Below, piece after piece: positions 3,169 through 25,290 of a DNA stretch of 38,900 nucleotides. Both the position numbers and the translations under genes were made by a program. Numbering within the stretch: the stretch's first letter is position 1; each line of letters begins with the position of its first letter. Below the pieces are notes generated by a model. It saw only the letters and a list, made by a program, of their open reading frames with translations, ran no database searches and had not been told where the DNA came from. Origin of the DNA: Magnetococcales bacterium. GTDB lineage: Bacteria > Pseudomonadota > Magnetococcia > Magnetococcales > JADFWU01. The stretch is from assembly GCA_015234045.1 (NCBI GenBank), contig JADFWU010000031.1, forward strand, positions 1 through 38,900, written 5' to 3'.

Positions 3169-3181
3169 TTTGGAATATCAA

Positions 3182-8368: not shown

Positions 8369-8396
8369 TAATAAGGGCTTTGGACGTGGTTAAAGC

Positions 8397-8430
8397 AAAA
8401 AAAACCGATCTCCAGGGCTTTGGAGATCGG
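8397..8430 (-). terminator. Rho-independent terminator of the kinase/response-regulator operon
   Basis: CCGATCTCCA (8405-8414) pairs perfectly with TGGAGATCGG (8421-8430) across a 6-nt loop. Eight A residues at 8397-8404 become a T-run on the minus strand, so the hairpin terminates leftward transcription from the operon above. In the plus direction no T-run follows. Confidence 0.8.
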
Positions 8431-8481
8431 TAAAGGTGTTGGTGCAAAATCGGAATGGCAACACGCGCAGATAAGGAGCAT

Positions 8482-8518
8482 GGCGAGGCGGCCTTCCCCC
8501 AAAGGCTGGTGCCTCGCC
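8482..8518 (-). repeat. Nested GC-rich hairpin
   Basis: GGCGAGGC (8482-8489) pairs with GCCTCGCC (8511-8518). Inside it GCCTT (8491-8495) pairs with AAGGC (8502-8506). A C-rich run (8524-8532, G-rich on the minus strand) follows. It lies in the 3' untranslated stretch of the minus-strand operon, upstream of its terminator. It could be an extragenic palindrome or a structured RNA; only this copy is seen in the window. Confidence 0.45.
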
Positions 8519-8703
8519 GAAGCCTCCCCCCGCTGCAAACTCAAAATAAATGCATGTGGAGCTACTCTACGACTTTGTGGAATTCATTATATTCATCTTA
8601 AAAAATTTGGGAATCATCCTATGGACGATTCGGATGTGATTCTTTCACCGTACTTATTGTGGTTGTTTGTACTACATGTGGAGGGCGTTATGGATTAACT
8701 GTT

Positions 8704-9336
8704 CTAATCGACCAATCCGAATTTCATAGCATAGTGGGTGAGTTCGGAATTATTTTTCATGCCCATTTTTTCCAGAAGGCGAGTACGGTAGGTGCTGATG
8801 GTTCTTGGGCTGAGTCCAAGTTCTTCGGCGATGATACCGACGGTTTTGCCAGAGGCGAGATGGCGTAGGACGGTGAATTCACGATCGGACAGGCGTTCAT
8901 GTAACGCTTTATCCACATCGCTGTTCCACTCCATGAGCATGCGTTCGGCGAGGTCTGAGCTGATGTGCCGACCACCGGATACGACTTTGCGGATGGCTTG
9001 AACCAGTTGATCGGGCGCACTATCTTTGGTGATATAGCCGCTGGCACCGGCTTTTAGGAAGCGCAGAGCCATCAACTCTTCATCGTGCATGGTGAGAATG
9101 AGGATAGGCAGGTCAGGTTTACCTTGTCGGACACGTCGGAGCACTTCCAGGCCATCTTTTCCGGGCATTGAGACATCCAGCAGGACCACATCCCAGGACT
9201 CTTTCAGAATGCGTTGAATGGCTTGCTGTCCATCTGATGCTTCACCATCAACACGCATATCACCGGTTTCGGCAAGCATATGACTTAGGCCGGCACGAAC
9301 GATTGCATGGTCATCGGCTATAAAAATTCGGATCAT
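8704..9336 (-). CDS. LuxR/NarL-family two-component response regulator
   Basis: Cytoplasmic DNA-binding response regulator of normal length (210 residues). The N-terminal receiver has the acidic pair D8-D9, phospho-acceptor D54 in VVLLDVSMPG, T82 and K104. The C-terminal LuxR-type HTH (about 148-205) contains LSDREFTVLRHLASG, then IAEELGLSPRTISTYRTRLLEKM. It overlaps the 3' end of the kinase gene by 4 bp (ATGA), so the two are translationally coupled and form a cognate pair. Closest in layout to NarL/UvrY-type regulators; the target genes are not visible. Confidence 0.94.
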   Translation of the reverse strand: MIRIFIADDHAIVRAGLSHMLAETGDMRVDGEASDGQQAIQRILKESWDVVLLDVSMPGKDGLEVLRRVRQGKPDLPILILTMHDEELMALRFLKAGASGYITKDSAPDQLVQAIRKVVSGGRHISSDLAERMLMEWNSDVDKALHERLSDREFTVLRHLASGKTVGIIAEELGLSPRTISTYRTRLLEKMGMKNNSELTHYAMKFGLVD

Positions 9337-12044
9337 AATGTTTCGACTCGATCACTTTCCTGACGGGGCAGCCAGGCGATTATTTGTGCGCCTTTGCCGA
9401 TGGCGCTACGAACAGTGACATCGCCACCATATTGTCTGGCGCGTTCTACCATACCGCGAATGCCGAACGAATTGGTATTGAGCATGATTTCCGGGGCAAA
9501 GCCTTTGCCATCATCTTTGATGGTCAATACGATACGCTGTTTTTCCAACAGCAGAGCCACGGAGACCGATTCAGCATTGGCGTGTCGGGTGATATTGGTC
9601 AACGCTTCCTGTGCGATACGGAATAAAACGGTCTCTCGGCGTTCATCCATACGGATATTGGGCGAACCGGGTTTAATAATACAAGGGATTCTCATAACAC
9701 GATTGAATTCCCGAGCCAACCATTCGAGACCAGCAAGGAGTCCGAACTGATCTAATACTTTGGGGCGAAGGCTGGTAACGATGCGGCGCATGGTGAGGAT
9801 GGCTTCATCGGTGAGCACCAATAAATCTTCAATTTTGTTCGCTTGTTTTTGATTGTTTATCATTTGTTTATGCATAAATGACAGATCCAGTTTAAACTTG
9901 GTCAGGAAGCTACCGAGTTCATCATGGAGTTCACGTGAGATACGTTTTTGTTCCTCTTCGCGAACAGTTTGGATATGTCGTGTAAGTTCACGGAGACGAT
10001 CACTGGATTTAACGAGGGCTTCTTCAGCGCGTTTACGTTGTGTCATATCGGTAATAACGGCGAAACTGCCATTGAAATTATTATCTGAATCGTAGATTGC
10101 TCTGGGACTGATCATCAGGTTAATGCTATCACCGGAGCTATTAAGGCCTTCAATTTCATAGGGTCTGGCATCACCGGCCATTCTGGAGCGCCACTGAGAT
10201 TCGATTCTATGACGTTCATGTTCGGGCACCAGATCAATAACCGCACGTCCTAACAGATCATCACGATTGCACTGCATCAATTCGGTAATACGATGATTGC
10301 AGTAGGTGATGGTTCTGTTTCGATCGACGATGACGAGGCCATCATTGAGGTTTTCGACCAATTCACGGTATTTCTGTTCACTTTTTCTGAGGCTGGCTTC
10401 AGCGGTGTGTTGTCCGGTGGTATCGGTGAGCACCATCATGGCAGCGGATTGATCATCCCAAGGCAACGGCACAATACGCACATGCCACCAGACACCGCCA
10501 ACACTGCGAATATCGAATATATCCACATGATTTTGTTCAAAGATGGTATCCATGGCTTTCCAAAAGCGTACTTGGCCGGATTGGTCCAGGTGATCGAGAA
10601 AGCAGATGCCTTGCATCAGAGGCGGTTCCATATCGAAGCGATCACAGTTAATGAAGCGGATCACGCCGTGTCGGTCCACCAATTGGATCACATCGGGAGA
10701 GGTTTCGACCAATGAACGAAAACGTGCTTCAGAGGCGTGCAAGGCTTCTTGAGTTTGGTCTCTGCGTTTCATTTCAACATGGAGGCGACTGTTTTTCAGA
10801 TCTAGTTCAAGGAAATTTTGTTGAAGCAATGTGGCCACGGTTTGGAGATGGTTGGACAGGTGGCTCACCTCTTCGATGGGGCTTGAGGCGAAAGAGAGAG
10901 GTTTTTCGGTTAGGATGCGTTGTGGTAATTGCGCGGTGATTTCAGCGAGTTTGAATAGGCTACTGGTCATATGCTGGCTGATCAGAGAGGCCAGGAAGAT
11001 AGCCAGCACCAGTATGAACAGGGTATTGGTGAGTGTTTCTCCGAGCAGGTATTGATAATTTTTGATCAGTTCATTGGTTGGCAGCATCAATACCAAACGC
11101 CGGTTAAAGGCGGTGGTTTCCATGAAATAGCTGGCTTGATTCCAGCGATCCATTATGGGTATTGAGTCGGGTCCGAAGCGCAGTTCTACGCCATCACGAA
11201 TGGGTATCCGTTCACCGTTCCACCAATCGGGGTTACCACGATTGCCATGAGGGATTCGAAAGCAGCGTTGAACAATATCGCCTTCGCTATCAAACTCTAT
11301 ACCCATCAAGCCGGGATGGGTGGCGAGGTGCTTCAGCCATTTATAGGAGTGGGTATCATATTGATCCAGTGTGTCTGAATCGTGCGGATGGTTTTCTTTC
11401 CAGTGAATGGAGATATGAGCCATTTGTTCGACGACTTGGGATTCAGCATGTTTTCGGATGTCATGGGCATCGAAAACCACAGTGACCAACGCGGGCACGA
11501 TCACGAAAAAGGCCAATAGATTTGTCAGCATCAACCGTAGGTTTACGTGATGGATTTGGGTCCATTTTCGGGCGAGTTGAGAGAAAGGGATGAGGGTACA
11601 GACAAGGCTGGCCAGCAGGGCATTGACTACACTTTTAACAGCCTGTAATCCGATGAGCAGTTCGGGCGGCAGGGTGTACAGAGGCATCAAATAGGTCACA
11701 CAGAGCCAATAACCGGGCAGTCCGAATATGAGCCAGAATACGGCATCCACGAGCAAAATATTTTTGTAACTTCGACGAACAAGAAATCCGACAACAATGA
11801 TTTCGATAAGATAAACAGGCAGTGCGTGAGGGTGGCCGATGGTGATCCAGCCGGGTAAGGCGGCGCAGAGCAGGATGAATAAAGCGTAGGGAATGCCGAG
11901 GATTCGGACAGCGATCAAGGCGGCGGCATTGCCGATACCTATTTCCAGTCCAAACGGTAGCGGGAAAGCCATCCAATTTCCCAGCAGGCCGAGCAGAGCA
12001 AGAATGCTCAACAGAGGGATGCGTTTTCGGGGCTTGTTTTGCAC
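9333..12044 (-). CDS. NarX/DegS-type membrane sensor histidine kinase with two PAS domains
   Basis: An inner-membrane sensor of 903 residues. The N-terminal third has several hydrophobic helices resembling MASE-type integral membrane sensors (LEIGIGNAAALIAVRILG). A further helix, a periplasmic segment of about 130 residues and another helix come next, followed by two PAS domains. The HisKA_3 dimerisation domain has RISRELHDELGSFLTKFKL with phospho-accepting H707. The HATPase_c domain has ALTNITRHA, DDGKGF and FGIRGMVERA. GTG at 12044 is preferred because AAGAG lies 9 nt upstream; an upstream in-frame TTG at 12092 would add 16 residues without a better ribosome site. It drives the LuxR-type regulator that overlaps its stop. 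The signal is unknown. Confidence 0.92.
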   Translation of the reverse strand: MQNKPRKRIPLLSILALLGLLGNWMAFPLPFGLEIGIGNAAALIAVRILGIPYALFILLCAALPGWITIGHPHALPVYLIEIIVVGFLVRRSYKNILLVDAVFWLIFGLPGYWLCVTYLMPLYTLPPELLIGLQAVKSVVNALLASLVCTLIPFSQLARKWTQIHHVNLRLMLTNLLAFFVIVPALVTVVFDAHDIRKHAESQVVEQMAHISIHWKENHPHDSDTLDQYDTHSYKWLKHLATHPGLMGIEFDSEGDIVQRCFRIPHGNRGNPDWWNGERIPIRDGVELRFGPDSIPIMDRWNQASYFMETTAFNRRLVLMLPTNELIKNYQYLLGETLTNTLFILVLAIFLASLISQHMTSSLFKLAEITAQLPQRILTEKPLSFASSPIEEVSHLSNHLQTVATLLQQNFLELDLKNSRLHVEMKRRDQTQEALHASEARFRSLVETSPDVIQLVDRHGVIRFINCDRFDMEPPLMQGICFLDHLDQSGQVRFWKAMDTIFEQNHVDIFDIRSVGGVWWHVRIVPLPWDDQSAAMMVLTDTTGQHTAEASLRKSEQKYRELVENLNDGLVIVDRNRTITYCNHRITELMQCNRDDLLGRAVIDLVPEHERHRIESQWRSRMAGDARPYEIEGLNSSGDSINLMISPRAIYDSDNNFNGSFAVITDMTQRKRAEEALVKSSDRLRELTRHIQTVREEEQKRISRELHDELGSFLTKFKLDLSFMHKQMINNQKQANKIEDLLVLTDEAILTMRRIVTSLRPKVLDQFGLLAGLEWLAREFNRVMRIPCIIKPGSPNIRMDERRETVLFRIAQEALTNITRHANAESVSVALLLEKQRIVLTIKDDGKGFAPEIMLNTNSFGIRGMVERARQYGGDVTVRSAIGKGAQIIAWLPRQESDRVETL

Positions 12045-12147
12045 TTTTGATATCTCTTTAGACCTGTTGGGATGGTCTGCTTTGTAGCACAATCGGATAA
12101 TTTATTTTTTCCGCGACCCTTATCCAGTTTTAATCCGGGGATCTATT

Positions 12148-13958: not shown

Positions 13959-14146
13959 GGGATAGGTCTGGAAAGGGCCAAGGCCCTTTCCAGTGGGTCG
14001 AACAGGGCAAAGCCCTGTTTTAAAGAAAAAGGCGCGTAAGAATCCGGAGCATTTTTTGCCCAAAGGGCGGAAAATGCGTAGCGCCGTGATCCAAAGGATC
14101 ACACAACCGGAGGCCCAAAGGGCCGACAAACCCCCACCAAAAAACC
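13959..14146 (+). repeat. Hairpin-cluster element, copy A
   Basis: Starts two bases after the stop of the hybrid kinase and contains five tandem hairpins: 13968-13993 (12-bp stem, AA loop), 14002-14018 (ACAGGGC/GCCCTGT), 14031-14085 (GGCGC/GCGCC enclosing GCATTTT/AAAATGC and GCCC/GGGC), 14086-14102 (GTGATCC/GGATCAC) and 14112-14124 (GGCCC/GGGCC). Every hairpin after the first has an AAA loop. It is homologous, in opposite orientation, to 18141-18328, with compensatory changes in several stems. It also lies just beyond the NACHT stop on the other strand, so it may act as a terminator for both genes. Confidence 0.85.
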
Positions 14147-14150
14147 AAAA

Positions 14151-14190
14151 ATCTCACAAACAAACCAAAAATCTCACAAACAAACCAAAA
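14151..14190. repeat. Two tandem copies of a 20-bp A-rich unit
   Basis: ATCTCACAAACAAACCAAAA occurs twice in perfect tandem (14151-14170 and 14171-14190), between hairpin cluster A and the 3' end of the NACHT gene. A partial match precedes the first copy. Probably replication slippage; no function is evident. Confidence 0.8.
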
Positions 14191-14199
14191 AAAGCCCAA

Positions 14200-17100
14200 T
14201 CACCACAGGGATAAAAAGTGCTCTTGTTGTTGAATTATTTCAACAAATCGTTCGGGTTCAAGATCTTCTGCCCGCCAGAGGGCAGGGGGCATGCGTGTAT
14301 CATTGGGGTTTTTGAAAGCACACAGGTTCAGGCCATTACCGGACCATGTGACTTTTCGTTCGTTGGTGAGATTATCAATGGCCAGATGGCCGCCGCCAGC
14401 AGCTAGGATGACAATTTTTAACATTTTTCCTGACTCGATATCCCACCAAATAAAGGTTCTGTCCTCGCTTGCTGTTTGAATGAGTTGTCTATTGTCCAAA
14501 GTAATAAAGCGTGCATCTGTAATAGGTGCGCGGTGTCCTTTGAAACAGTTTATTTCCGTACCTTCTTCAGAATCCCAAAGTCGGGCGGTATTGTCTCGGC
14601 TTGCGGTGAGTATCTGTTTGCCATCTTTGGAGAATACAGCGCTTCGGACCCAATGATCGTGCCCCTTGAACATGTGAATGAGAGCGCCATTTTCAGCGGA
14701 GAAGATGCGAGCGGTGCGGTCATCAGAGGCGGTGACCACGCGATTCCCGTCGCTGGAAAAAGCGGCGCTATTGACGGAATCATCGTGCCCCTTGAGCATG
14801 TGAATGAGAGCGCCATTTTCAGCGGAGAAGATGCGAGCGGTGCTGTCATAAGAGGCGGTGACCACGCGATTCCCGTCGCTGGAAAAAGCGGCGCTATTGA
14901 CCAAATGATCGTGCCCCTTGAGCATGTGAATGAGAGCGCCATTTTCAGCGGAGAAGATGCGAGCGGTGCTGTCAGAAGAGGCGGTGACCACGCGATTCCC
15001 GTCGCTGGAAAAAGCGGCGCTTCGGACCCAACCATCGTGCCCCTTGAGCATGTGAATGAGAGCGCCATTTTCAGCGGAGAAGATGCGAGCGGTGCTGTCA
15101 TAAGAGGCGGTGACCACGCGATTCCCGTCGCTGGAAAAAGCGGCGCTATTGACGGAATCATCATGTCCCTTGAGGATATGAATGAGAGCGCCATCCACAA
15201 TGGAAATGATATGGGCGGTACCATCATCAAATCCGAGAACAGCATATTTACCATCTGGAGAAATATCACCACATTGCAGAGTATGAGTTCTGCCAACGTC
15301 CAAAGTTCTTGAGAGTAGGCCGCTGGTCAGATCCCAAAAGCAGATCCTGTTATCTGAACCGAACGTGCAATAGATCTGGTCATTAAATCGTAATACACCG
15401 CCAGTCAAATCAGTCACTGAATGTCCTTGTTGCAAAATGAGCGTACCATTTTGATTGCTCTCAATCAGCGCATCAGGGCAATTGATGCTGTGCGGTGTTA
15501 AGCAGCGCTTGACTTGGCTTTCATTCCATTGGCTATCTGATAGATCAGCCCAGGCAAAGCGGACAGCAGTGCATATGGCGTGATTGAAACAGGCGCTTTT
15601 TAGATCGGTTTTGATCAGATTGGCAGAATCAAGGGTTGCGTGACTGAAATCTGCACTTTCAAAACAACCTGATGAACCATTTGCATAATATAGATTGGCT
15701 TTTTGAAATAAAGCATTATTGAATTTTCCATGGCACAGAGAGGCACGGATAAGAGATGCGCGGCGGAAATTTGTTTTGTGTGCAGTAGAATTATTTAAGT
15801 TTGAAAAATCAAGTTGCGTATCGGCAAAATCAGCGCCACTGAGATCAGCGCCATGCAGGTTGGTATTCATCAGATTAGCACCGGAAAAGTGCCCGTTGAC
15901 CAAATAGGCACCGGATAGATCCATATCGTTCAAGCGGGCACCATGTAGCCGTGCTCTATCTGGCCAAAATGCCTGCATTCGTTCGGTAGGTGTGTTGGTG
16001 GCCCTATAGGTTTCATCAGGCCCGATATGATCCACTCGGGAAAGGTAAAGCGCCAAACGCAGGGCGTTTTCACTGATTTTTTCTTGGTACGTTTCTGAAA
16101 GGATCGCTTTGATCTCGGTTAAAAAATCCGGCCAGGGAATTTGAGTGTCCAGATAGTCACCAAAAAATTGAATGAGTTCGGGGCTGAGTGATGCTGTGCT
16201 CAATACGGAACGAAATGATTTTTTAGGATGTTGCCAACGCCGCACCAGATGACGCGCCATGAAATATTCCAAAAAACTCCGATGAGAAAAACGGTAGTTT
16301 CCATGGCTGTCTCGGGTAAGAAATGCGGCATAGCGCATTTCAAGATCTACTTTGATCGGGTCCAGCTCATCAGGAAATAGATCTCCCGCCTTACGCTCAA
16401 CAAGGGCCAGTAGTTCCCGGTAATGTATCTGATGTTTAGCATCTTTCCATAATTTCTCTGCTAACTCTTCAAGTAGAGCAATGCGTTGTTTGGCGTTGGT
16501 AACTCCGGTCTGTTGACCCAACCACTGATTGGTGAATTTTTCATAGAGCATGGTGGCTGTTACCCGCTCTGGATTCTCTTTCATCAAATCAGGCAGGTTC
16601 TTGAAAATCATTTCAAGAAGGACTGGACGCCGGGTTAGCTCGGTAAGGTCACTGGTTTTTTCAATGAATTCCTCTGCTTTTTTAAGTTGCTCTTTATCGT
16701 TAATGCGTGTGCTGAGGTAACGATCAACATCGTCTGAGCTGAAGTAGCAAAGCTGATCCAACGCCGCCTCATAAGAGCGGGCTTCCTTGCCAAGCAGGGA
16801 TAAATCATCACCAGTACGAAAGTAATCAGACTCAATTTGTTTAGTGTCTTTAAAAAAATGGGTTCGGCTGGTAATCAATACCCGGCCCTGACCTGTTTTC
16901 GAGGCCAGAGCCAAGGCTTTAAACTGACTATCCACACTCCGCCCAATGGTGGCCGCGCCCATCTCATCAAAGGCATCCAGCAGAAGAACAATCTCTCCCT
17001 TTTCCAACAGATAGAGAAATAGTTTTGGTGGACCAAACCACCCCCGTTCTTCTCGAAGTGCTTCTTGAATAAGATTCTCAAGGCTGGTGGCATTAGGGAA

Positions 17101-17793
17101 TTTTTTCAGATCAATGGCCAGCGGTTTTGGCGCTTCGGGATCACTCAACGCTTTTTCAGCCAATTCCGCAGCTAATTTATTGAAAAATACTGACTTTCCC
17201 GTTCCATAATCACCCAGTAAAAGCCACAATTTCTTACCAACTACGCCACGACTCCACTGTTGTGCATAAGGGAGAAGATCTGTTTTTTCATCACCGCTTC
17301 TATCTTCAAGCGCTACATGTTGATTAATGTAATGTTTTGCAACCGGATCACTTGAATATTGCAGGACCAGATCTGCCATATACTTTTTAAATTGAAACCG
17401 TTTTTCAAGAAGCTGATCAGGTGTAAAAGTATTAATATTCAACTTGCTGGCAGCTGTACGTGCCGGATAGGTAAAGCCGCGGGCAACAAACATTCCTCGC
17501 GCATGCATTCCCTTTGCTTCATCACCATCCAACCATATTTTAAATAGATGAATCTTCTCTTTGCTTATATCTTCTTTATGATCCTTACATTCCACTAAAA
17601 ATGGTGAATCATCAATATCATCCAACTTTCTTGCAACCAAATCGACCCGGTTACCATCAATTAACTGTTCTCGTTCCAAAGTGTAGCCAAGAAAGCTCAG
17701 GAGATTAGCGATATGGTTTTCAAACCGGTCACCTTTTTCTTTCGGATGTGGTTGTCCAGAACTTTTTGACAATTTATCTTTATCTTCACTCAT
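14200..17793 (-). CDS. STAND-type NACHT protein: Mrr/PD-(D/E)XK nuclease, NACHT, pentapeptide repeats, WD40 repeats
   Basis: A 1197-residue predicted cytoplasmic protein. Residues 20-135 form a restriction-endonuclease-like fold: KGDRFENHIANLL with E25, then D51 in GNRVDLVAR and E68-C-K70 in FLVECKD. NACHT NTPase: Walker A GDYGTGKS (194-201), Walker B IVLLLDAFDE (268-277), sensor RVLITSR ending at R310, winged-helix-like LTRRPVLLEM (387-396) and the FSHRSFLEYFMAR helix (502-514). Pentapeptide repeats A(D/N)LxxA cover about 616-755. WD40 repeats cover about 795-1150; four are almost identical 42-residue units with GHD and DSTARIF motifs. The layout (nuclease effector, signal-transducing NTPase, repeat sensor) matches STAND anti-phage or immune receptors such as Avs and bNACHT. 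A defence role is inference. It is a single gene with its own upstream region, enclosed by inverted hairpin clusters. Confidence 0.88.
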   Translation of the reverse strand: MSEDKDKLSKSSGQPHPKEKGDRFENHIANLLSFLGYTLEREQLIDGNRVDLVARKLDDIDDSPFLVECKDHKEDISKEKIHLFKIWLDGDEAKGMHARGMFVARGFTYPARTAASKLNINTFTPDQLLEKRFQFKKYMADLVLQYSSDPVAKHYINQHVALEDRSGDEKTDLLPYAQQWSRGVVGKKLWLLLGDYGTGKSVFFNKLAAELAEKALSDPEAPKPLAIDLKKFPNATSLENLIQEALREERGWFGPPKLFLYLLEKGEIVLLLDAFDEMGAATIGRSVDSQFKALALASKTGQGRVLITSRTHFFKDTKQIESDYFRTGDDLSLLGKEARSYEAALDQLCYFSSDDVDRYLSTRINDKEQLKKAEEFIEKTSDLTELTRRPVLLEMIFKNLPDLMKENPERVTATMLYEKFTNQWLGQQTGVTNAKQRIALLEELAEKLWKDAKHQIHYRELLALVERKAGDLFPDELDPIKVDLEMRYAAFLTRDSHGNYRFSHRSFLEYFMARHLVRRWQHPKKSFRSVLSTASLSPELIQFFGDYLDTQIPWPDFLTEIKAILSETYQEKISENALRLALYLSRVDHIGPDETYRATNTPTERMQAFWPDRARLHGARLNDMDLSGAYLVNGHFSGANLMNTNLHGADLSGADFADTQLDFSNLNNSTAHKTNFRRASLIRASLCHGKFNNALFQKANLYYANGSSGCFESADFSHATLDSANLIKTDLKSACFNHAICTAVRFAWADLSDSQWNESQVKRCLTPHSINCPDALIESNQNGTLILQQGHSVTDLTGGVLRFNDQIYCTFGSDNRICFWDLTSGLLSRTLDVGRTHTLQCGDISPDGKYAVLGFDDGTAHIISIVDGALIHILKGHDDSVNSAAFSSDGNRVVTASYDSTARIFSAENGALIHMLKGHDGWVRSAAFSSDGNRVVTASSDSTARIFSAENGALIHMLKGHDHLVNSAAFSSDGNRVVTASYDSTARIFSAENGALIHMLKGHDDSVNSAAFSSDGNRVVTASDDRTARIFSAENGALIHMFKGHDHWVRSAVFSKDGKQILTASRDNTARLWDSEEGTEINCFKGHRAPITDARFITLDNRQLIQTASEDRTFIWWDIESGKMLKIVILAAGGGHLAIDNLTNERKVTWSGNGLNLCAFKNPNDTRMPPALWRAEDLEPERFVEIIQQQEHFLSLW
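14637..15172 (-). repeat. Near-identical 126-bp tandem repeats encoding WD40 blades
   Basis: About 4.2 copies of a 126-bp unit (42 codons). The same landmark G recurs at 14762, 14888, 15014 and 15140. Copies are nearly identical, including at synonymous sites. Differences fall on a few codons: the two after GHD, the N/R before SAAF, and the residues around the second Asp (Y, S or D; S or R). Because 126 is a multiple of 3, the opposite strand also shows a long repetitive open frame, which is an artefact. Copy number could vary between strains. Confidence 0.95.
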
Positions 17794-18358
17794 AGCAATA
17801 TCACACCAATCCTATAAATAAATACACCACGCCCCAAAAAAAACAGCTTAACCCATTCTATCAGTTTGCATGGCGCGTTACTCTGTTCAATTAACGGCGG
17901 ATATCTGCTATTGCCTGGTTTTTCATAGGATTCAATTCCCTATGAAACAGCGCATTGTGCCCTAATCCGTGGCACCGCCTTGTGTTGAATGACAATGGTA
18001 AGTAAGCCGTTGATATGCTCAACCAGGCCACCATCTGTACCTCTTGTGTGGCTTTTTATATTGGTCTTATAGGCTGGTTTGGCGGGCTTGTTTTGTTGGT
18101 TTCTTATTTTGTGGTGCAGCCCTTTGGGGCTTTGTTGAGGGATTTTTTTTGGGGCGTTTGGTCGGCCTTTGGCCTCCGGTTGTGTGGCCCTTTGGGCCAC
18201 GGCGCTACGCATTTTTCGTGCTTTGCACAAAAAATGCTCCGGATGCTGACGCGCCTTTTTACTTTAAAACAGGGCTTTGCCCTGTACGACCCACTGGAAA
18301 GGGTCTTGACCCTTTCCAGACCTATCCCTTTGGTCGCTCGGCCTTTGGCCTCTCTCTT
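17794..18358. other. Gene-free region upstream of the NACHT gene
   Basis: Contains the 5' region of the NACHT gene (17794 to about 17950, AT-rich near the start, no convincing promoter boxes) and then hairpin-cluster copy B. Extra CC-AAA-GG style hairpins flank the copy at 18118-18131 and 18340-18350. Open frames in this stretch are low-complexity readings of the hairpins and I reject them as genes. Confidence 0.6.
18141..18328 (-). repeat. Hairpin-cluster element, copy B
   Basis: Read on the minus strand it begins about 30 bp after the stop of the ABC permease and aligns along its length with copy A (13959-14146). Stems: 18294-18319, 18269-18285, 18201-18255 (outer) with 18209-18237 (inner), 18184-18200 and 18164-18174. 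Versus copy A, paired positions change together: hairpin 1 C-G to T-A, hairpin 3 GCCC/GGGC to GTGC/GCAC, hairpin 4 GTGATCC/GGATCAC to GTGGCCC/GGGCCAC. The AAA loops and the spacers are largely conserved. It may also end the permease transcript. Confidence 0.85.
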
Positions 18359-20422
18359 CTACCGTCCTGCATTCAAATCCGAATGCAATAAATCCGATGG
18401 CGTCGTTCCCGGTCTCAACGGCAACTTCAAACCCAACAAAAACGCAACAACCATAACCACCATAAACACAGCACCAATGGTCACCATCACCTCCCAAAAC
18501 GGCAAAGGCAATACCTCCAATCCATGCCCCGGCGGTAACCGGTCCTGATACTCAGTCAAAATCTGATCAAACCCACGCTCTAAAAAGTGACGCAACAACG
18601 GCACAAGACCAAAAATCGTAATCAATGCCGCCGCTAACGTAGCCCAACCCAACTGAACCAATAACTTAGCGTGCAAAGTCAACCAAGTAAAACCATGGCT
18701 CAATAAAATACCGTAATGATTCCGGCGATGATCAACTAACGTGCCAATCTGAGCAAATAATAACGTAGAAAGCAACGCAATGAACGTGATCGCATAAACC
18801 GGAACCATGGTCGCTAAAATGTCACTGAGCAGATTAAAACGGTTCAACGCATCCTGATACATAGGATGAATGTTCAATGCCTGACGACCGTCTGGTGTCC
18901 GAATCGACATCAATGTCTCAATCACATCACTGATGCTGGTAGGATCTCGCGTAAACACATGAATCGCACCAAATGAGTTGCCATAACTCGTCACATCCCA
19001 AGGAACAAATTGCCCGTGCTCATCGCTGGCACTCTCCCAACTCGGACAAAGACTCCCACGCATGGCATCATTGCGCGGTAAACGATGACAGGGCATCCAT
19101 AACCAATTATGGCCGTCATGGTTTAATGTGTCTGGCTGCGCTTTCTCACCATCGCGTTGATCAATAGTGCCGTCAAAACCTTCCTGAGCCGGAGCAGAAA
19201 CCGCCCCACTGGCCGAACGGCCAAAAATCTTCGGTGGCTGACAGCGATCCGTCTGAATCTGTGGTAAACCACTCAAACCCGTCGCGTTGACCTCTTCCTG
19301 TACACACAACGCATATTGAATAATCTGATCCCGTGGATAGGATGGGTCCATCAATCGATCCCATTGATCACGGTCAGAAATACCCTGATTGCCCGGCGCA
19401 AATGTGAGTTCAGATAGATGATGTGCAGCTTGAAGCGCATGATATGTGCTCAATGGAAATAAAAATGCAATCTTCTCCATCGCCGGAATGTGACTCACCC
19501 AAGTGACCTTGAATGGTACTAAATGTTCCTCATGCGATACCGTAGCTTTCAACCATAAAGTCTCCAGCATCGTTAACGAATTCTGCCATAAACGCGGTGG
19601 AAGCTTGTTAAACTCCTCTTTGGATAAGAAAGGCTCCAGTGATTCGCGGTAAGCTCCGTAATCAAATTGCTCGGCGAAGAGATTCTCGCTCAAAATAATC
19701 TCAAGCGGTAAGCCAAGCCATTCAGGCTTTTCTTCAACAGTACCCTGATGTTTCGACTGTAACGTTGGTAAATTTTTACCAAAAATGATATTGGCCGCTT
19801 TGTCAAAAGGTGGTGTGCGCCACCAGGGCAAGTCGTCCTCAATATTGGCCTTCATGCCCGATTTGCCCAACTGCCATAACGGATCATCTGGATAAACCGC
19901 CCAACCCACAAAAGGTGGTGACGATTTCCAAACACTGCTATTGGGCATCTGAACCCGTGGACTGTTGTTGGCTAAACGGCGATAAGGATGTGCTGAAAAA
20001 AGAGGCTCCGGTTCCGCCGCCTGTACACCATGATTCGGTGCCGGTGCAGCCGGCACAGCCGGTTTGCTCAAACGATCCAACTGTTCCAACAGTTGACGCT
20101 GAATGCCCTCGTTGTTCTCCCAATGCGAAGTGACCCAAATCGGAACACCATGTGGACGCAATGTGCCCAATAATGAGTCCGTCAAACGATCCAAAAATCC
20201 TGATCGACTGCCGACTAATAATAACGCCAGACAAATCACCAATGAGAGTAGGAGCGTTAACCACGCAAAGTCACGCCCACCTTCCTCGCAACCAAATGGC
20301 TTGCAGCGAAATGATCGACGAAATGCCGTACTGCCCATGGAAAACCATACCGGCAATAGACGGATTCTTTTCTTGGCCGTGGGCGGTACAACCCCAGCCT
20401 GAGATGAATTTTGTTGGCTCAT
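18359..20422 (-). CDS. FtsX/MacB-like ABC transporter permease
   Basis: An inner-membrane permease of 687 residues. One transmembrane helix lies near the N-terminus (about 50-70), followed by a very large periplasmic domain (about 75-525) and three C-terminal helices (about 535-560, 585-605, 650-675), the last followed by LKLPLRPG. This one-plus-three topology is that of FtsX/LolC/MacB permeases, which act as mechanotransmission or lipoprotein-handling machines rather than classic import channels. The periplasmic domain does not look like a standard MacB domain. Its ATG overlaps the ATPase stop by 4 bp (ATGA). Partners are the ABC ATPase and the VWA protein encoded upstream. The substrate is unknown. 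Confidence 0.85.
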   Translation of the reverse strand: MSQQNSSQAGVVPPTAKKRIRLLPVWFSMGSTAFRRSFRCKPFGCEEGGRDFAWLTLLLSLVICLALLLVGSRSGFLDRLTDSLLGTLRPHGVPIWVTSHWENNEGIQRQLLEQLDRLSKPAVPAAPAPNHGVQAAEPEPLFSAHPYRRLANNSPRVQMPNSSVWKSSPPFVGWAVYPDDPLWQLGKSGMKANIEDDLPWWRTPPFDKAANIIFGKNLPTLQSKHQGTVEEKPEWLGLPLEIILSENLFAEQFDYGAYRESLEPFLSKEEFNKLPPRLWQNSLTMLETLWLKATVSHEEHLVPFKVTWVSHIPAMEKIAFLFPLSTYHALQAAHHLSELTFAPGNQGISDRDQWDRLMDPSYPRDQIIQYALCVQEEVNATGLSGLPQIQTDRCQPPKIFGRSASGAVSAPAQEGFDGTIDQRDGEKAQPDTLNHDGHNWLWMPCHRLPRNDAMRGSLCPSWESASDEHGQFVPWDVTSYGNSFGAIHVFTRDPTSISDVIETLMSIRTPDGRQALNIHPMYQDALNRFNLLSDILATMVPVYAITFIALLSTLLFAQIGTLVDHRRNHYGILLSHGFTWLTLHAKLLVQLGWATLAAALITIFGLVPLLRHFLERGFDQILTEYQDRLPPGHGLEVLPLPFWEVMVTIGAVFMVVMVVAFLLGLKLPLRPGTTPSDLLHSDLNAGR

Positions 20423-21207
20423 AGGTCCAAAGGATTACCTTGATCACGGCCCTGAAGATGACATCGACCATGAGACACAACCAACCGGTGCGTCACACGG
20501 CTATCCAAGGCGTCGGAAAGATGATGAGTCACCCACATGAATAGACGATTGCTCTCTCCAAGCCACTCTTCAACAATAGACATAACCTCTTTACGCGTGG
20601 CCGCGTCCAGGTTGCCTGTAGGCTCATCAGCAAATAGTACACATGGATCGTGGATCATCGCCTGGGCCAAGGCTACACGCTGTAGCTGACCGCCGGATAA
20701 TTCGTTCGGATAGCGTTCGAGAAGTTCAGAAACAGAATCCTCGCCGCCAATCGTACCGCCACCCTGACCGCACAGCAATACCCGGTTTACCATCCGGTAA
20801 ACTTTCTCATCCATCTCGGAATCAGATAAATTGCGCTGTAATGCCAATGGATAGCGTAAATTTTCACCCACTTTGAGATACGGTGAAAGTGTGCTCTTCT
20901 GATGGGCAAAACCAAAATAACTGCGCCGTACTTCTTTCATGGTCAAGCTTGATTTGCTCTTTACTAAACCATGCTGATCAAACGCAGCCGTATGTCCATC
21001 AGGAAAGGTCCATAAAACCTGACCCTCTTTAGGCAGTTTCAAAAATGAGGACAAATAGAGCAGGGTGCTCTTACCACTTCCGCTTCGACCCAAAACCGGC
21101 AGCCGCCCAGAAATGGCCTCCGCATCAATCTCAAGTCGATCTACTTCCAGATTGAACGTTTGTCCCCAGCCAACTTTGCTTGAGTCGATTCGGCAACCCC
21201 AGTTCAA
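20419..21207 (-). CDS. ABC transporter ATPase (LolD/MacB type)
   Basis: Cytoplasmic ATPase of 262 residues that powers the overlapping permease. Walker A is GRSGSGKS, the Q-loop region is FGFAHQKS, the signature is LSGGQLQRVALAQAM, Walker B is CVLFADEPTGNLD and the H-loop is VTHH. The GNLD extension after Walker B is typical of the LolD/MacB/FtsE group. The start is TTG at 21207, overlapping the stop of the VWA gene in a TTGA; AAAGGA lies about 8 nt upstream, which supports this unusual start and tight translational coupling. A short insertion occurs between the Q-loop and signature (GQGGGTIGGEDS). Confidence 0.92.
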   Translation of the reverse strand: MNWGCRIDSSKVGWGQTFNLEVDRLEIDAEAISGRLPVLGRSGSGKSTLLYLSSFLKLPKEGQVLWTFPDGHTAAFDQHGLVKSKSSLTMKEVRRSYFGFAHQKSTLSPYLKVGENLRYPLALQRNLSDSEMDEKVYRMVNRVLLCGQGGGTIGGEDSVSELLERYPNELSGGQLQRVALAQAMIHDPCVLFADEPTGNLDAATRKEVMSIVEEWLGESNRLFMWVTHHLSDALDSRVTHRLVVSHGRCHLQGRDQGNPLDL

Positions 21208-23867
21208 GGCAGATATTCCTTTGGAATCCAGTAACCACGCCGTCCACCAAATGAGTGTGATAGACGATACTCTTTATTAGGACCAAGTGGCTCCGCTTCA
21301 ATGGTACTCAAAATGCGCGGTAATGCCCGACCATTGGATGTAGCGTCAGGACAACGGGCTGGACTGTAAAAGCCCACTTTGAATACCGGTCGCGTAAAGT
21401 TGCGCTCAACCACTTCCAGCATCTCTTTTGAACGAATCGCCCAAAGTGCCAAGCGTCGTAACTCACAATTTGGCACCGCCTGAATGGTCATGCCTGCTTT
21501 GTCCAGAATCGGTTGCTGTTTGTTGTTTACCACAATTAAATGATTGCTATCGTCCCGAGCAACACGATTGGCCGAAATGGCCGCAACCTTGTAACTCAAT
21601 AATGGACTGTGACGACGAACCGGCAATCCACCACGACGCTGTGCATATTCCGCCGGCGTTTCACCCGATACATCAATCGGTGGCTTGCGAATCTCCTGCT
21701 GTAGACCCAATACCAATGCACTGATCAAAGCACGCCGTAACTGTTGCTCCGGTAACTCGTAATAGCCTTCAAAGCCACGCAAAATCCGAATCCACGAAGA
21801 AAGCGCACTGGATGAAATCCATAGCTCCTCAACGATATCGTCATTGGCTTCAATATAGCCAACCTGCGTGGTGTCAAACACCTGATCCCGGCAGTTTTTC
21901 ACATCTTTGCCACAGGCATCATGTTCCAAGACATGCCAAAATACACCCGGAATATCAACACGCTCACGGCGTAAACGATCAATAACCTGACTGAGCGCCT
22001 TACCACCGCGAACATCCAAAATGATCTCATTGATCAGTGTGCTACTGGCAAACTTGCCTACCGTCTGAACCAGTCTTGCCACCAACTTCTCTTCACCCAT
22101 GCGGAAGAAATGATCGTCCACATTGGAATCCGATGGCAAACTGTCACTCAACAAGCTGCGTGCCTGTGTCTCAAACTTCCGATACGCACGCATATAGGCT
22201 GTTGGATGCTTGGCCTGATCCTTACGGTTAGGCGTTTGAATAAAAAAGCTGATAACGTTGTTGCCCTTAACGCCCGGTGTGTCACCACCTAACAGCAATC
22301 GCGCCAAATCACCACGTGTTGTCGGGTTGCCATACTTATCAATGGAACGCGCACGACCATCCTCAAGAATGACTGTCTGACGACGCTTAAAACCATGGTC
22401 GCCAATCACAAACAAGAGCTTCAAATTTTCAGGACAGGAAACAATATCCTTCTGTAGCGTCTGAACCAGACCGCCATACATGTTCTCTTCGTAGTCGTCC
22501 TGATCATCCGCCGTGGACTGAACCTGAGCAATCTCTCGCTCAAAATCTTCATAAGCAGCAGTCCGAGACGCAGCATTCATCTCGCACATGTCCGGCAAAG
22601 GAAAACCTTCACCAACTCCTAAACCAGGACCAGAAGTAACCACCTTGTCGGCATAAGGATCACGATATACCCGAAAACCAAACCGAAATTCCGTCTCATC
22701 AAAGCCCGGCGTACTTTTCAGTGTGGCGATGATCTCTTGAATCACACCGCGCTTCTCAATATTACCGCGCACCGCATCAATAACCGCATCCATACTGGCC
22801 GTTGCATCCAGTAGGAAGAATACATCAACCTTCTTCTTGGCGGAAAGCGATTCAAGGGAATCCAACTGTTCAGGAATAATCTGACGTGCTAAATCAGACG
22901 AAATAGCAAACTTGCCGTTGCCCAACGCACGACCCACCAAACCCGGTTGCGCCAGCGCGACTTTATAGAACAAACGTTGATCGCTGTTCTTGTCCGCCAA
23001 ATCTTCAGGACGAACATGTTTGTCATTCTTGTCCACCAAGTCCAACACCGGAATACGCGATGGACTCTTGAACCAGGCATTGCCACCCTTAACAGGATTA
23101 CACGCTTCAGGATTCTGTGACACCGCATCCTTCAAACGCGAATACGCACAGATGGTGCCTGCATCATCGCCATAAGGCGATTTGATATGCTCGGCAGGAC
23201 GCAAACCAAACGCATTGTTCCAGCGAAAGCCATTGGATTTTTTAACCCAACCCAGCAGCATATCGCCCTCTTCCAGGCGGTACCGATCAGCCAATAAAAC
23301 AGACTGCTCACGCTCATCAAACACAAAATACATCTGGAAACGCGCTGCACCTTCGATGCATGCCTTCCCATCAACACAGCCTACCAATTCAGGATCACGA
23401 TAGACCGAAACCATTGGTTCGGACTGGTCCTGTTGACGCGCTGTAATATCTGTTTTAATAAAGAATTTTATTTCGAGACCCGTATCGCTTTTAATCGGCA
23501 GATTGCGACAGAGTAAATTTTCCTTATCAGCCCAACCGGTCTGTGATTTACCACCACGACCCGGCAGAGTTCGGAGTTGAACCCGTTTGCCTTTCTCCGA
23601 AAGAATTTCCGCCTGTAGATTAAACGGCAACTGAGCAGCGATCTTGCGCGTCTCAGCGTCAGCATGTAACGGCGTGTGATGACGCAATACACGTGCGACA
23701 CCAGCCCATTTCAAGCTGTTGTTATGATAGAAATTACTGAAATCAAACTCCGCGCAGGATCCCGGTGATGCCTGTACGTTCTCGGTGGAAACCAATAACG
23801 CCATGCACACCAGAAAACTGGTCACAATTTGAAGCGGTAATCGACGAAAATCCATAAAGGAAAACAT
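21204..23867 (-). CDS. Exported von Willebrand factor A protein with SH3-like domain
   Basis: A predicted periplasmic protein of 887 residues from ATG 23867, chosen because GAGGG lies 8 nt upstream; the frame is also open to a TTG at 23882. The signal peptide ends near ENVQA. A bacterial-SH3-like segment follows (about 50-120, ending near QTGWADKENLLC). A VWA domain begins near residue 347 with VFFLLDATASMDAV, where DATAS is the DxSxS-type MIDAS motif, and continues with FGFRVYRDP and LLFVIGDHG. The C-terminal 300 residues show no recognised domain. Many cysteines suggest disulfides in the periplasm. It overlaps the ABC ATPase gene by 4 bp, so it probably works with that transporter, perhaps as a metal-dependent binding or scaffold subunit. 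Confidence 0.83.
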   Translation of the reverse strand: MFSFMDFRRLPLQIVTSFLVCMALLVSTENVQASPGSCAEFDFSNFYHNNSLKWAGVARVLRHHTPLHADAETRKIAAQLPFNLQAEILSEKGKRVQLRTLPGRGGKSQTGWADKENLLCRNLPIKSDTGLEIKFFIKTDITARQQDQSEPMVSVYRDPELVGCVDGKACIEGAARFQMYFVFDEREQSVLLADRYRLEEGDMLLGWVKKSNGFRWNNAFGLRPAEHIKSPYGDDAGTICAYSRLKDAVSQNPEACNPVKGGNAWFKSPSRIPVLDLVDKNDKHVRPEDLADKNSDQRLFYKVALAQPGLVGRALGNGKFAISSDLARQIIPEQLDSLESLSAKKKVDVFFLLDATASMDAVIDAVRGNIEKRGVIQEIIATLKSTPGFDETEFRFGFRVYRDPYADKVVTSGPGLGVGEGFPLPDMCEMNAASRTAAYEDFEREIAQVQSTADDQDDYEENMYGGLVQTLQKDIVSCPENLKLLFVIGDHGFKRRQTVILEDGRARSIDKYGNPTTRGDLARLLLGGDTPGVKGNNVISFFIQTPNRKDQAKHPTAYMRAYRKFETQARSLLSDSLPSDSNVDDHFFRMGEEKLVARLVQTVGKFASSTLINEIILDVRGGKALSQVIDRLRRERVDIPGVFWHVLEHDACGKDVKNCRDQVFDTTQVGYIEANDDIVEELWISSSALSSWIRILRGFEGYYELPEQQLRRALISALVLGLQQEIRKPPIDVSGETPAEYAQRRGGLPVRRHSPLLSYKVAAISANRVARDDSNHLIVVNNKQQPILDKAGMTIQAVPNCELRRLALWAIRSKEMLEVVERNFTRPVFKVGFYSPARCPDATSNGRALPRILSTIEAEPLGPNKEYRLSHSFGGRRGYWIPKEYLP

Positions 23868-24027
23868 GGAACAAGCCCTCAAGCTTCAACTCAGCCTACC
23901 GAACAAGACGCAAACTATGAACAGTTTACTATTCGGTTTTGACGGCATTGTCCGTATAAATGGCCTCTGAGGCAACAGTTTACAATTCTAACGGTGAAGA
24001 AATACGATTTGATCGCACATACGGCAG

Positions 24028-25290
24028 CTAGGGTTGAGTAGTACCAACCTCATGAACCAGGCGAAATCCAGCAACCGAAATCATTGCAGGCATGCAGGTT
24101 TCTCGACTTGTCACTGACACTGCAACCCAATCATCTTCACCGATTAAATAGTAGCCATTGTCACATGGTGAACTGGACCATTCAGGCACACCACGCAACA
24201 GTTTTTCAGGCCGTTCATCCTCGGCAACACCTTGACTATAGATGACCGTAGCACCCCACTGAAGTCGGCTCGGCAAGGCAAAAGCACAGCCGGTCAGTTC
24301 GCTCAACCAGGTTGCATAGTCACTGGCCGCTTCCCAAGAGATGCCGCGCACGGATTTAGAGTTGGCATCATTACGATTCCAATGTAGACCAATACGCATC
24401 AGTAGATCATTTTTGTCAGGACTATCAGGCAGACTCTGAACATGATCTACATATTTTTTGAACTGTTTTGAGCTAACTTCATCTTTTTGAATGACAAACG
24501 GTGTGTCAATATCAATATAATTCAAACGATGTGCCTGTAAAAATAGTGCCGGATCAGAAGCTGAATCCAGCCCCGACAGATCATAACGCCCTGCCGGTAT
24601 CATGAATAACTCAACCTGAGTTTCACGGAGCGATTCTGGCTGGCAAGCAGGTGTTAACGTGATAGCACTGCTCTCCTTAACCGGTGCCATGACCTGTGCT
24701 TTTGTCTCACTCTCTCTTGGTTCAGGTCGAGAGTGAGGTTTTGATTCCGCCTTTGTCGTCAGTTCATTAAGTTCTGAAAGATCAGGAATATCAATGTTAT
24801 CCGTAACATTTTCCGGGGCAGCAGGAAGTGAATTGGATTCCGTTGTATCAGGCATTTCTTCAGCGGTCACCTCAGGTGCAGGTGATAGTATGTTCTCATT
24901 GGCCGCACTCGGCTCTGGAATAGGTTCAGCAATCTCAGAAAGCGGGCTCACAGGCGTATTCGGCACTGTGTCCAAAGTGGAAAGAGAGCTGTTGAGCGTT
25001 TGAACCGGTGTTGTGTTTTGTTTGACATCCGAGTTGCGTTTGGCAATAGATGGTGTTGTCGATGGTTCATCAGGCTGGTTAACCAAGGTCCAGCCGATCC
25101 AAAGAACCAGAGCAACTATAATGAGATGAACGAATCGATTACGCCCTGGACCACTGTTTGAACGCCGTTTATGACGATGGCCACGTGTGGTCAATGGTTC
25201 AGGTTTAGGCGGCGGCTGTTCTTCAACCACAGGTTGTGGTTTTGAGGGAGCAGCCTGGCCTGGCCGTTTTTCTGGGATTTTGATATCCAA
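24028..25290 (-). CDS. Membrane-anchored FGE/SUMF1-like (formylglycine-generating-enzyme fold) protein
   Basis: A 420-residue protein with a proline-rich cytoplasmic tail (1-50), one transmembrane helix (about 53-71), a long Ser/Thr/Pro/Glu linker (72-215) and a C-terminal FGE-sulfatase-like domain (about 225-415). Family hallmarks are the FVIQKDEVSSKQFKKYV start, VRGISWEAASDYATWLSELTG, FALPSRLQWG and the final AGFRLVHE. The paired catalytic cysteines of true formylglycine-generating enzymes are not evident, since only C399 lies near the expected site, so it may be a binding domain. An in-frame TAA two codons upstream leaves TTG 25290 as the first start, with no clear ribosome site. It lies 160 bp upstream of the VWA-ABC genes on the same strand and may belong with them. 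Confidence 0.75.
   Translation of the reverse strand: MDIKIPEKRPGQAAPSKPQPVVEEQPPPKPEPLTTRGHRHKRRSNSGPGRNRFVHLIIVALVLWIGWTLVNQPDEPSTTPSIAKRNSDVKQNTTPVQTLNSSLSTLDTVPNTPVSPLSEIAEPIPEPSAANENILSPAPEVTAEEMPDTTESNSLPAAPENVTDNIDIPDLSELNELTTKAESKPHSRPEPRESETKAQVMAPVKESSAITLTPACQPESLRETQVELFMIPAGRYDLSGLDSASDPALFLQAHRLNYIDIDTPFVIQKDEVSSKQFKKYVDHVQSLPDSPDKNDLLMRIGLHWNRNDANSKSVRGISWEAASDYATWLSELTGCAFALPSRLQWGATVIYSQGVAEDERPEKLLRGVPEWSSSPCDNGYYLIGEDDWVAVSVTSRETCMPAMISVAGFRLVHEVGTTQP

What the first reader, a model, noticed from the sequence alone, without database searches (positions are those of the whole stretch)
14200..17793. Single-protein STAND receptor with a nuclease effector and two stacked repeat sensors
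The protein joins a PD-(D/E)XK/Mrr-like domain (E25, D51, E68-x-K70), a NACHT NTPase (GDYGTGKS; LLLDAFDE), about 28 pentapeptide repeats and 7-9 WD40 repeats. STAND NTPases with N-terminal nucleases are established anti-phage receptors (Avs, bNACHT). A pentapeptide block between NACHT and WD40 is not the standard layout of the characterised ones I know. I infer an abortive-infection or anti-phage nuclease triggered by a ligand bound at the WD40 surface.
Basis: partly seen in the sequence, partly recalled or inferred. Interest (0 to 1): 0.8.

Follow-up and report, generated by a model that had tools for sequence, protein, structure and literature searches.

The report
Nuclease immune receptor with self-diversifying sensor
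This gene, from a magnetotactic-type bacterium, encodes an NLR-like receptor with a predicted DNA-cutting domain and a repeat sensor that varies at the same surface spots as fungal immune receptors; its relatives in at least three bacterial phyla sit in a conserved three-gene operon with a nitrilase and a DNA-binding protein, which this copy lacks.

Summary
One intact 1197-aa ORF (14200-17793, minus strand) joins an Mrr-type PD-(D/E)XK domain, a NACHT NTPase, about 30 pentapeptide repeats and a WD40 propeller. AlphaFold/Foldseek places the N-terminus among PD-(D/E)XK nucleases.

The 'single protein' label is true only of this copy. All 15 close relatives (38-46% identity; Magnetococcales, Desulfobacterota, Acidobacteriota, Burkholderiales, Accumulibacter, Competibacter) carry an extra N-terminal KGGVGR (ParA/MinD-like) domain. 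All have a winged-helix gene upstream, and 12 also a nitrilase gene. The window lacks all three; whether it lost them or never had them is unresolved.

The sensor is the strongest functional clue. WD40 blades within a protein are nearly identical, and their differences concentrate at seven positions per blade. In register these equal the seven diversifying positions of fungal HET-D/HET-E receptors (1 of 100,000 permutations).

Most likely function: a ligand-triggered, self-damaging nuclease of the NLR/bNACHT kind, probably anti-phage. No phage phenotype or defence-island context was found. PADLOC recognises neither the family nor its operon partners as a known system. Verdict: new variant of a known kind; the operon is the more novel part.

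The parts
14200..17793 (-). 1197-aa receptor: Mrr PD-(D/E)XK - NACHT - pentapeptide repeats - WD40 propeller
   Evidence: single copy in its genome
17344..17736 (-). N-terminal Mrr-like PD-(D/E)XK domain (aa 20-150; E25, D51, E68-C-K70)
   Evidence: PF04471 E=3.6e-10; AlphaFold2 alpha-beta-beta-beta-alpha-beta core, pLDDT 82; Foldseek to NucS/EndoMS, Can2, Card1, MspJI; conservation
16024..17241 (-). NACHT NTPase and its helical region (about aa 185-590)
   Evidence: PF05729 E=8.3e-7; conserved in all 15 relatives
17191..17214 (-). Walker A GDYGTGKS (aa 194-201)
16963..16986 (-). Walker B / NACHT signature LLLDAFDE (aa 270-277)
15505..15954 (-). About 30 consecutive pentapeptide repeats (aa 614-763), predicted beta-helix
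   Evidence: PF00805; strict five-residue strand period in the full-length model; register count
14341..15420 (-). WD40 propeller, about nine 42-aa units (about aa 792-1151)
   Evidence: PF00400; model with best full coverage by eight-bladed Tako8
14665..15168 (-). Four near-identical WD40 blades (aa 876-1043), varying at unit positions 4, 5, 7, 23, 25 (and 41)
   Evidence: 126-bp tandem repeat, 4.3 copies, 93%; codon table; variable-site analysis
17794..18358 (.). Upstream intergenic stretch where relatives have nitrilase gene, winged-helix gene and KGGVGR domain; none is detectable here
   Evidence: tblastn of partner genes A, B and domain K finds nothing in the whole window
13959..14118 (+). 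Left copy of a dispersed intergenic repeat, inverted relative to the right copy
18168..18328 (-). Right copy of the same dispersed repeat

Best explanation
A STAND/NLR-type receptor. At rest, the NACHT domain holds the Mrr-type nuclease inactive. A ligand, most likely a protein of an invading phage or other mobile element, binds the face of the WD40 propeller formed by the variable positions of each blade. NACHT then exchanges nucleotide and oligomerises, the nucleases are brought together, and they cut DNA, stopping or killing the infected cell. The pentapeptide beta-helix is a rigid spacer or second contact surface. Recognition changes quickly, because blades are duplicated and homogenised within a gene while seven surface positions per blade are diversified. 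In relatives the receptor also has a KGGVGR ATPase domain and is encoded with a winged-helix protein (probable regulator) and a nitrilase (probable second effector or signal enzyme). The window copy is a stand-alone version working through the nuclease alone. Shown here: the domains, conserved catalytic residues, predicted fold, operon and site-specific blade variation. Inferred: the ligand's nature, oligomerisation, DNA cutting, cell arrest and partner roles.
For: Domains and fold. Catalytic and Walker residues are conserved over 15 relatives in several phyla. Blade variation concentrates at unit positions 23, 7, 5, 4, 25, 3, 32, which in register (shift 7) equal the seven high dN/dS positions 10, 11, 12, 14, 30, 32, 39 used for fungal HET-D/HET-E (PMC12222747): 1 of 100,000 permutations, and each of five proteins on its own gives shift 7. 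Amino-acid versus synonymous variants are enriched at these sites in every protein (p 0.007-0.055). Blades outside these sites are more alike within a protein (0.81-0.99) than between proteins, even where the enzymatic cores are 85% identical (0.73). Conserved operon nitrilase - winged helix - receptor. Precedents: bNACHT25/32 with an N-terminal PD-(D/E)XK DNase needed for phage defence (PMC12169576); DRT1, a nitrilase effector causing abortive infection (PMC13275509).
Against: No defence-island context: the window neighbours are haem, phosphate, metal-transport and two-component genes, and most relatives' neighbours look like housekeeping genes. No PADLOC system model fits. No phage phenotype exists for any member in the papers found. 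The window copy lacks the KGGVGR domain and partner genes that every relative has at least in part, so it may not be functional alone. Only four near-identical blades exist in the window, so its own selection test is weak (p=0.055).
Confidence: 0.66

Rival explanations
1. The window copy is a decaying or dependent remnant of the three-gene operon: it has lost the KGGVGR domain, the winged-helix and the nitrilase genes and no longer works alone, or works only with partners supplied in trans.
For: All 15 relatives have at least part of these parts and the window has none. The start codon lies in what is the KGGVGR-Mrr linker of relatives and has no clear ribosome site (alignment). No partner gene was found elsewhere in its genome (though the tool warns that an empty answer is weak). 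Another member, L042, has a degenerate KGGVGR motif and degenerate nuclease and no nitrilase gene, so members do decay. The window branch is long.
Against: 1197 codons are open and catalytic, Walker and NACHT residues are all kept; blades are fresh duplications with variation concentrated at recognition sites, which suggests recent use; unlike L042, its nuclease site is intact.
Confidence: 0.2
2. A self/non-self or kin-recognition receptor (as in fungal heterokaryon incompatibility), or a receptor for conjugative elements, rather than a phage sensor.
For: Match of diversifying blade positions to fungal HET-D/HET-E, which act in allorecognition (PMC12222747, PMC4986451).
Against: Bacteria do not fuse cells; characterised bacterial NACHT proteins with such nucleases sense phage proteins (PMC12169576). 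No secretion or contact-delivery partner is seen next to the gene.
Confidence: 0.12
3. A regulatory or metabolic switch: the KGGVGR ATPase, winged-helix protein and nitrilase form a nitrogen-related regulatory unit, and the Mrr-like fold only binds DNA.
For: Operon partners are a MarR/DUF7343-like winged helix and a carbon-nitrogen hydrolase; housekeeping neighbours.
Against: Nuclease acidic catalytic residues are kept in 15 of 16; patchy spread over phyla and unrelated neighbourhoods for closely related copies (L043 and L044, cores 85% identical, no shared neighbour beyond the two partner genes); diversifying sensor blades do not fit a fixed metabolic ligand.
Confidence: 0.08

Closest known systems
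bNACHT25/bNACHT32 (bacterial NLR-related proteins, clade 6)
   Same: N-terminal PD-(D/E)XK DNase, central NACHT, C-terminal sensor; a conserved Asp (D48) needed for defence (PMC12169576)
   Different: Their C-terminus is a helical NCH1 domain; here pentapeptide repeats plus a diversifying WD40 propeller. Family members here also have a KGGVGR domain and an operon with winged helix and nitrilase.
Fungal HNWD receptors HET-D / HET-E (HET-NACHT-WD40)
   Same: NACHT plus near-identical WD40 repeats under concerted evolution, with diversification at the same seven blade positions (PMC12222747)
   Different: Effector is HET (cell death) in fungi and an Mrr-type nuclease here; fungal role is heterokaryon incompatibility; no pentapeptide block mentioned.
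WRAP STAND proteins of cyanobacteria (highly repetitive WD40 propellers)
   Same: Bacterial STAND ATPase with recently amplified WD40 blades and rapid turnover (PMC9218822)
   Different: Linked there to TIR/caspase partners, not to Mrr, KGGVGR or nitrilase.
Avs (AVAST) STAND antiphage proteins
   Same: STAND NTPase with N-terminal nuclease in several types (from general knowledge)
   Different: No Avs model matched among PADLOC hits; C-terminus here is pentapeptide plus WD40.
DRT1 / class 3 UG reverse transcriptases
   Same: Use a nitrilase domain as antiphage effector (PMC13275509); operon gene A is a nitrilase with conserved E, K, E, C
   Different: No reverse transcriptase here; the nitrilase is a separate gene and its role is unknown; window copy has none.
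VMAP ternary and related NTP-dependent conflict systems (Kaur et al. 2020)
   Same: STAND NTPases, Mrr-clade nucleases, MinD/ParA-like domains, pentapeptide and propeller repeats occur as components (PMC7159879)
   Different: No vWA-MoxR-VMAP core was recognised as part of this receptor's operon.

Membership tests
NACHT-type STAND NTPase (bNACHT) | NACHT domain with Walker A and the D-x-x-D-E type Walker B | tested here: met
   PF05729 29.4 bits against cut-off 26.7; GDYGTGKS and LLLDAFDE invariant or nearly so
NACHT-type STAND NTPase (bNACHT) | Tripartite layout: N-terminal effector, central NACHT, C-terminal sensor | tested here: met
NACHT-type STAND NTPase (bNACHT) | Ligand-triggered oligomerisation and phage protection | not testable with these tools
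   needs experiment
Mrr-type PD-(D/E)XK nuclease | Core fold and D...E-x-K residues | tested here: met
   PF04471 E=3.6e-10; Foldseek matches to PD-(D/E)XK nucleases; E25, D51, E68, K70
Mrr-type PD-(D/E)XK nuclease | DNA cleavage | not testable with these tools
   needs assay
Avs (AVAST) | Match to an Avs profile | tested here: not met
   PADLOC-DB 2.0 scans list no Avs family for the window protein or 14 relatives
WD40 receptors with high internal conservation (HNWD-like) | Near-identical WD40 repeats varying at specific surface positions | tested here: met
WD40 receptors with high internal conservation (HNWD-like) | N-terminal HET domain | tested here: not met
   N-terminus is Mrr-like
Nitrilase - winged helix - KGGVGR-Mrr-NACHT-pentapeptide-WD40 operon (family described here) | KGGVGR domain fused before Mrr | tested here: not met
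   absent from the window; present in 15 of 15 relatives, motif degenerate in L042 and frame broken in L048
Nitrilase - winged helix - KGGVGR-Mrr-NACHT-pentapeptide-WD40 operon (family described here) | Upstream winged-helix and nitrilase genes | tested here: not met
   absent from the window; winged helix in 15 of 15, nitrilase in 12 of 15 relatives (L041 and L048 contigs end first; L042 lacks it)
Nitrilase - winged helix - KGGVGR-Mrr-NACHT-pentapeptide-WD40 operon (family described here) | Homologous Mrr-NACHT core | tested here: met
   38-46% identity over the Mrr-NACHT core

The most novel reading that the evidence does not exclude
The family is an undescribed bacterial NLR-like immune operon with two enzymatic arms, a DNase on the receptor and a separate nitrilase, controlled by a ParA/MinD-like domain and a winged-helix protein, and with a WD40 sensor that diversifies by blade duplication and selection at the same seven positions as fungal NLRs; the window holds a streamlined solo version that shows the nuclease receptor can evolve apart from the nitrilase arm.
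Probability: 0.35. Interest if true: 0.8.

Novelty: new variant of a known kind. Interest (0 to 1): 0.62.

Why it matters
If right, bacteria and fungi converged on, or share, the same way to evolve a receptor: copy WD40 blades, keep them alike, and vary the same seven surface positions. That makes the bacterial family a tractable model in which ligand recognition could be read from blade positions and swapped between receptors. The operon also ties nitrilases, so far rare in antiphage defence, to an NLR-like receptor, and the solo window copy gives a natural experiment on whether that arm is needed.

Tried and rejected
Phage records: no match. First genome-contig scan with the single protein: no confirmed relative; the alignment query found 17 loci. 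IMG/VR: five contigs match mainly the NACHT/P-loop region, at 26-31%; not family members. Plasmid hits are Mrr-NACHT or NACHT proteins at 21-28% identity, too distant. Flanking inverted repeats looked like the ends of a mobile element, but they belong to a dispersed intergenic repeat (about 17 other places), also downstream of convergent genes elsewhere, so they are not evidence of mobility. GC of the gene (46.2%) does not differ from the contig (47.8%). Search for a KGGVGR remnant upstream: none. Tree to decide loss against ancestral absence: undecided (AU p 0.37 for grouping with the Magnetococcales copies, 0.61 for being sister to all; grouping with Desulfocapsa/Desulfosudis rejected, p 0.009). 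Sigma-70 promoter scan gave nothing upstream of the gene. PADLOC hit HEAT-ARM_XIII is a WD40-region match only (residues 968-1147) and not taken as membership.
Full report
What is there. The window is a whole 38.9-kb contig of a 3.6-Mb draft genome. Order peers that carry close relatives are named Magnetococcales, so the host is taken to be one as well; this is an inference from kinship codes. The ORF at 14200-17793, minus strand, is intact and 1197 aa long, and is the only copy in its genome. Pfam finds Mrr_cat (E=3.6e-10), NACHT (8.3e-7), pentapeptide and WD40 repeats in that order.

Fold. With 15 relatives as alignment, residues 1-185 model at pLDDT 82 with the alpha-beta-beta-beta-alpha-beta core of PD-(D/E)XK enzymes; D51 and E68 lie on two core strands. 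Foldseek's best PDB matches are NucS/EndoMS, AF1548, the CRISPR ancillary nuclease Can2, Cdn1, MspJI and Card1, which from general knowledge are PD-(D/E)XK proteins where the function is known. The full-length model (pLDDT 81, pTM 0.49, so relative domain positions are not trusted) shows nuclease, NACHT with helical region, a beta-helix with a strict five-residue period, and a propeller best covered by the eight-bladed Tako8 and by WRAP designs.

Relatives. An alignment query found 15 loci with 38-46% identity over the Mrr-NACHT core, in Desulfobacterota, Magnetococcales, Thermoanaerobaculia, Accumulibacter, Competibacter and Burkholderiales. Within the phylum it is rare: among 398 genomes only this one and two Magnetococcales had the full-length Mrr-NACHT match. 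E25 and E68 are invariant and D51 nearly so; K70 is Arg in L037 and L042.

The family is more than one protein. Every relative carries before Mrr a KGGVGR-type ATPase domain (NF047398, E about 1e-34 in the two scanned). Immediately upstream lies a winged-helix gene (MarR/DUF7343-like) in all 15, and before it, in 12, a carbon-nitrogen hydrolase whose Glu, Lys, Glu and Cys (E222, K280, E291, C314 in L034) are invariant in nine aligned sequences. In two others the contig ends before the place, and in L042 another gene sits there. In L035 the hydrolase reading frame holds a stop. Closely related copies (L043 and L044, cores 85% identical) share no other neighbour, as expected of a horizontally moving unit. 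In the window none of the three is detectable, nor are the two genes found elsewhere in its genome (the tool warns an empty answer is weak). The tree cannot tell loss from ancestral absence.

Natural variants. L042 has lost both the KGGVGR motif (FYSYSDAASRDD) and the nuclease motif (VEARDW, no D51) and lacks the nitrilase gene, but keeps NACHT, pentapeptides and WD40. L037 ends after the pentapeptides and has no WD40. Several contigs break inside the WD40 repeats.

The sensor. Four of the window's roughly nine 42-aa units average 90% identity. Among them, eight of the nine extra amino-acid variants fall at the seven positions 3, 4, 5, 7, 23, 25, 32 counted from the GH, with no synonymous codon variant there; the other 35 positions have one amino-acid and two synonymous variants. 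One codon differs at all three bases (AAT/CGA, position 7). In five proteins together the most variable positions are 23, 7, 5, 4, 25; the fungal set 10, 11, 12, 14, 30, 32, 39 (taken from PMC12222747, which cites earlier dN/dS work) fits best at shift 7 in every protein, and 1 of 100,000 permutations does as well. The register was found by best fit, not by aligning a fungal sequence; the spacing pattern is what matches. Amino-acid over synonymous variation is enriched at these sites in each protein (p 0.007-0.055). Blades are more alike within than between proteins, the mark of concerted evolution. Similar highly repetitive STAND-WD40 proteins are known in cyanobacteria (PMC9218822).

How it most likely works. 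From established knowledge of STAND proteins: ligand binding at the C-terminus, nucleotide-driven oligomerisation by NACHT, activation of the N-terminal effector. bNACHT25/32 show this with a PD-(D/E)XK DNase, with DNA degradation on infection and loss of defence in D48A (PMC12169576). Here the sensor is a diversifying propeller. The pentapeptide block is conserved in place, also in Magnetococcales STAND proteins with an NNH6-like N-terminus, so it is part of the chassis rather than an oddity; spacer or extra contact surface is a guess. For the operon, a nitrilase effector has one published antiphage precedent, DRT1, whose authors call nitrilases uncommon in defence (PMC13275509).

What weakens it. 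Neighbours of the window gene are haem, phosphate, metal-transport and two-component genes, and a scan of 36 neighbours of relatives gives scattered hits, mostly of kinds that also occur in housekeeping genes (methyltransferases, DnaG-like); one strong reverse-transcriptase-model hit was not followed up. No PADLOC system model fits the receptor or its partners. Repeat counts come from a draft assembly and may be wrong; PMC12222747 reports that such repeats are not reconstructed from Illumina-based assemblies.

Judgement. The biochemical reading (nuclease STAND receptor with a diversifying sensor) is well supported; the anti-phage role is likely but untested. It is a new variant of a known kind. 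I found no paper in the library that describes the operon; most subscription papers are not in that library, so priority is not established.

Noticed in passing
L024, L025, L027, L029, L030 (Magnetococcales loci): Large STAND proteins with an NNH6-like helical N-terminus, an EAL-like region in L030 (below cut-off), NACHT, and in those read through (L025, L030) pentapeptide repeats and many similar WD40 blades: the same chassis with another N-terminus.
   Followed up: partly
L086 (G000:C22:24000-42000), 3565-12082, minus strand: Two ParA/KGGVGR-like proteins with long TPR arrays (1026 and 1137 aa) with two overlapping unknown genes between them, in the window's own genome.
   Followed up: partly
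window 18359-25290, minus strand: Cluster of FtsX-like permease, LolD-like ABC ATPase, an 892-aa protein with a vWA-like 'DVFFLLDATASM' stretch and an FGE-sulfatase-domain protein next to the receptor gene; function unclear.
   Followed up: no
window 3170-8368, plus strand: 1732-aa protein with M12B-like metallopeptidase, DUF11, TSP3, RCC1, PKD and carboxypeptidase-regulatory-like domains.
   Followed up: no
window 13959-14118 and 18168-18328: Inverted pair of a dispersed intergenic repeat rich in short GGG...CCC hairpins, about 17 other places in the genome, often just after stop codons.
   Followed up: partly
window 14138-14191: 20-bp tandem repeat (2.8 copies) directly after the receptor's stop codon.
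   Followed up: no
L042 9140-14305: Competibacter member with both the KGGVGR motif and the nuclease site degenerate and no nitrilase gene, yet intact NACHT motifs and a long WD40 array.
   Followed up: partly
L037 8933-12268: Magnetococcales member that ends after the pentapeptide repeats and has no WD40 part in any forward frame just downstream.
   Followed up: yes
neighbours in alignment A7: One neighbour gene of a relative matches the PADLOC RT_UG29 model at E=1.7e-47; which gene it is was not traced.
   Followed up: no
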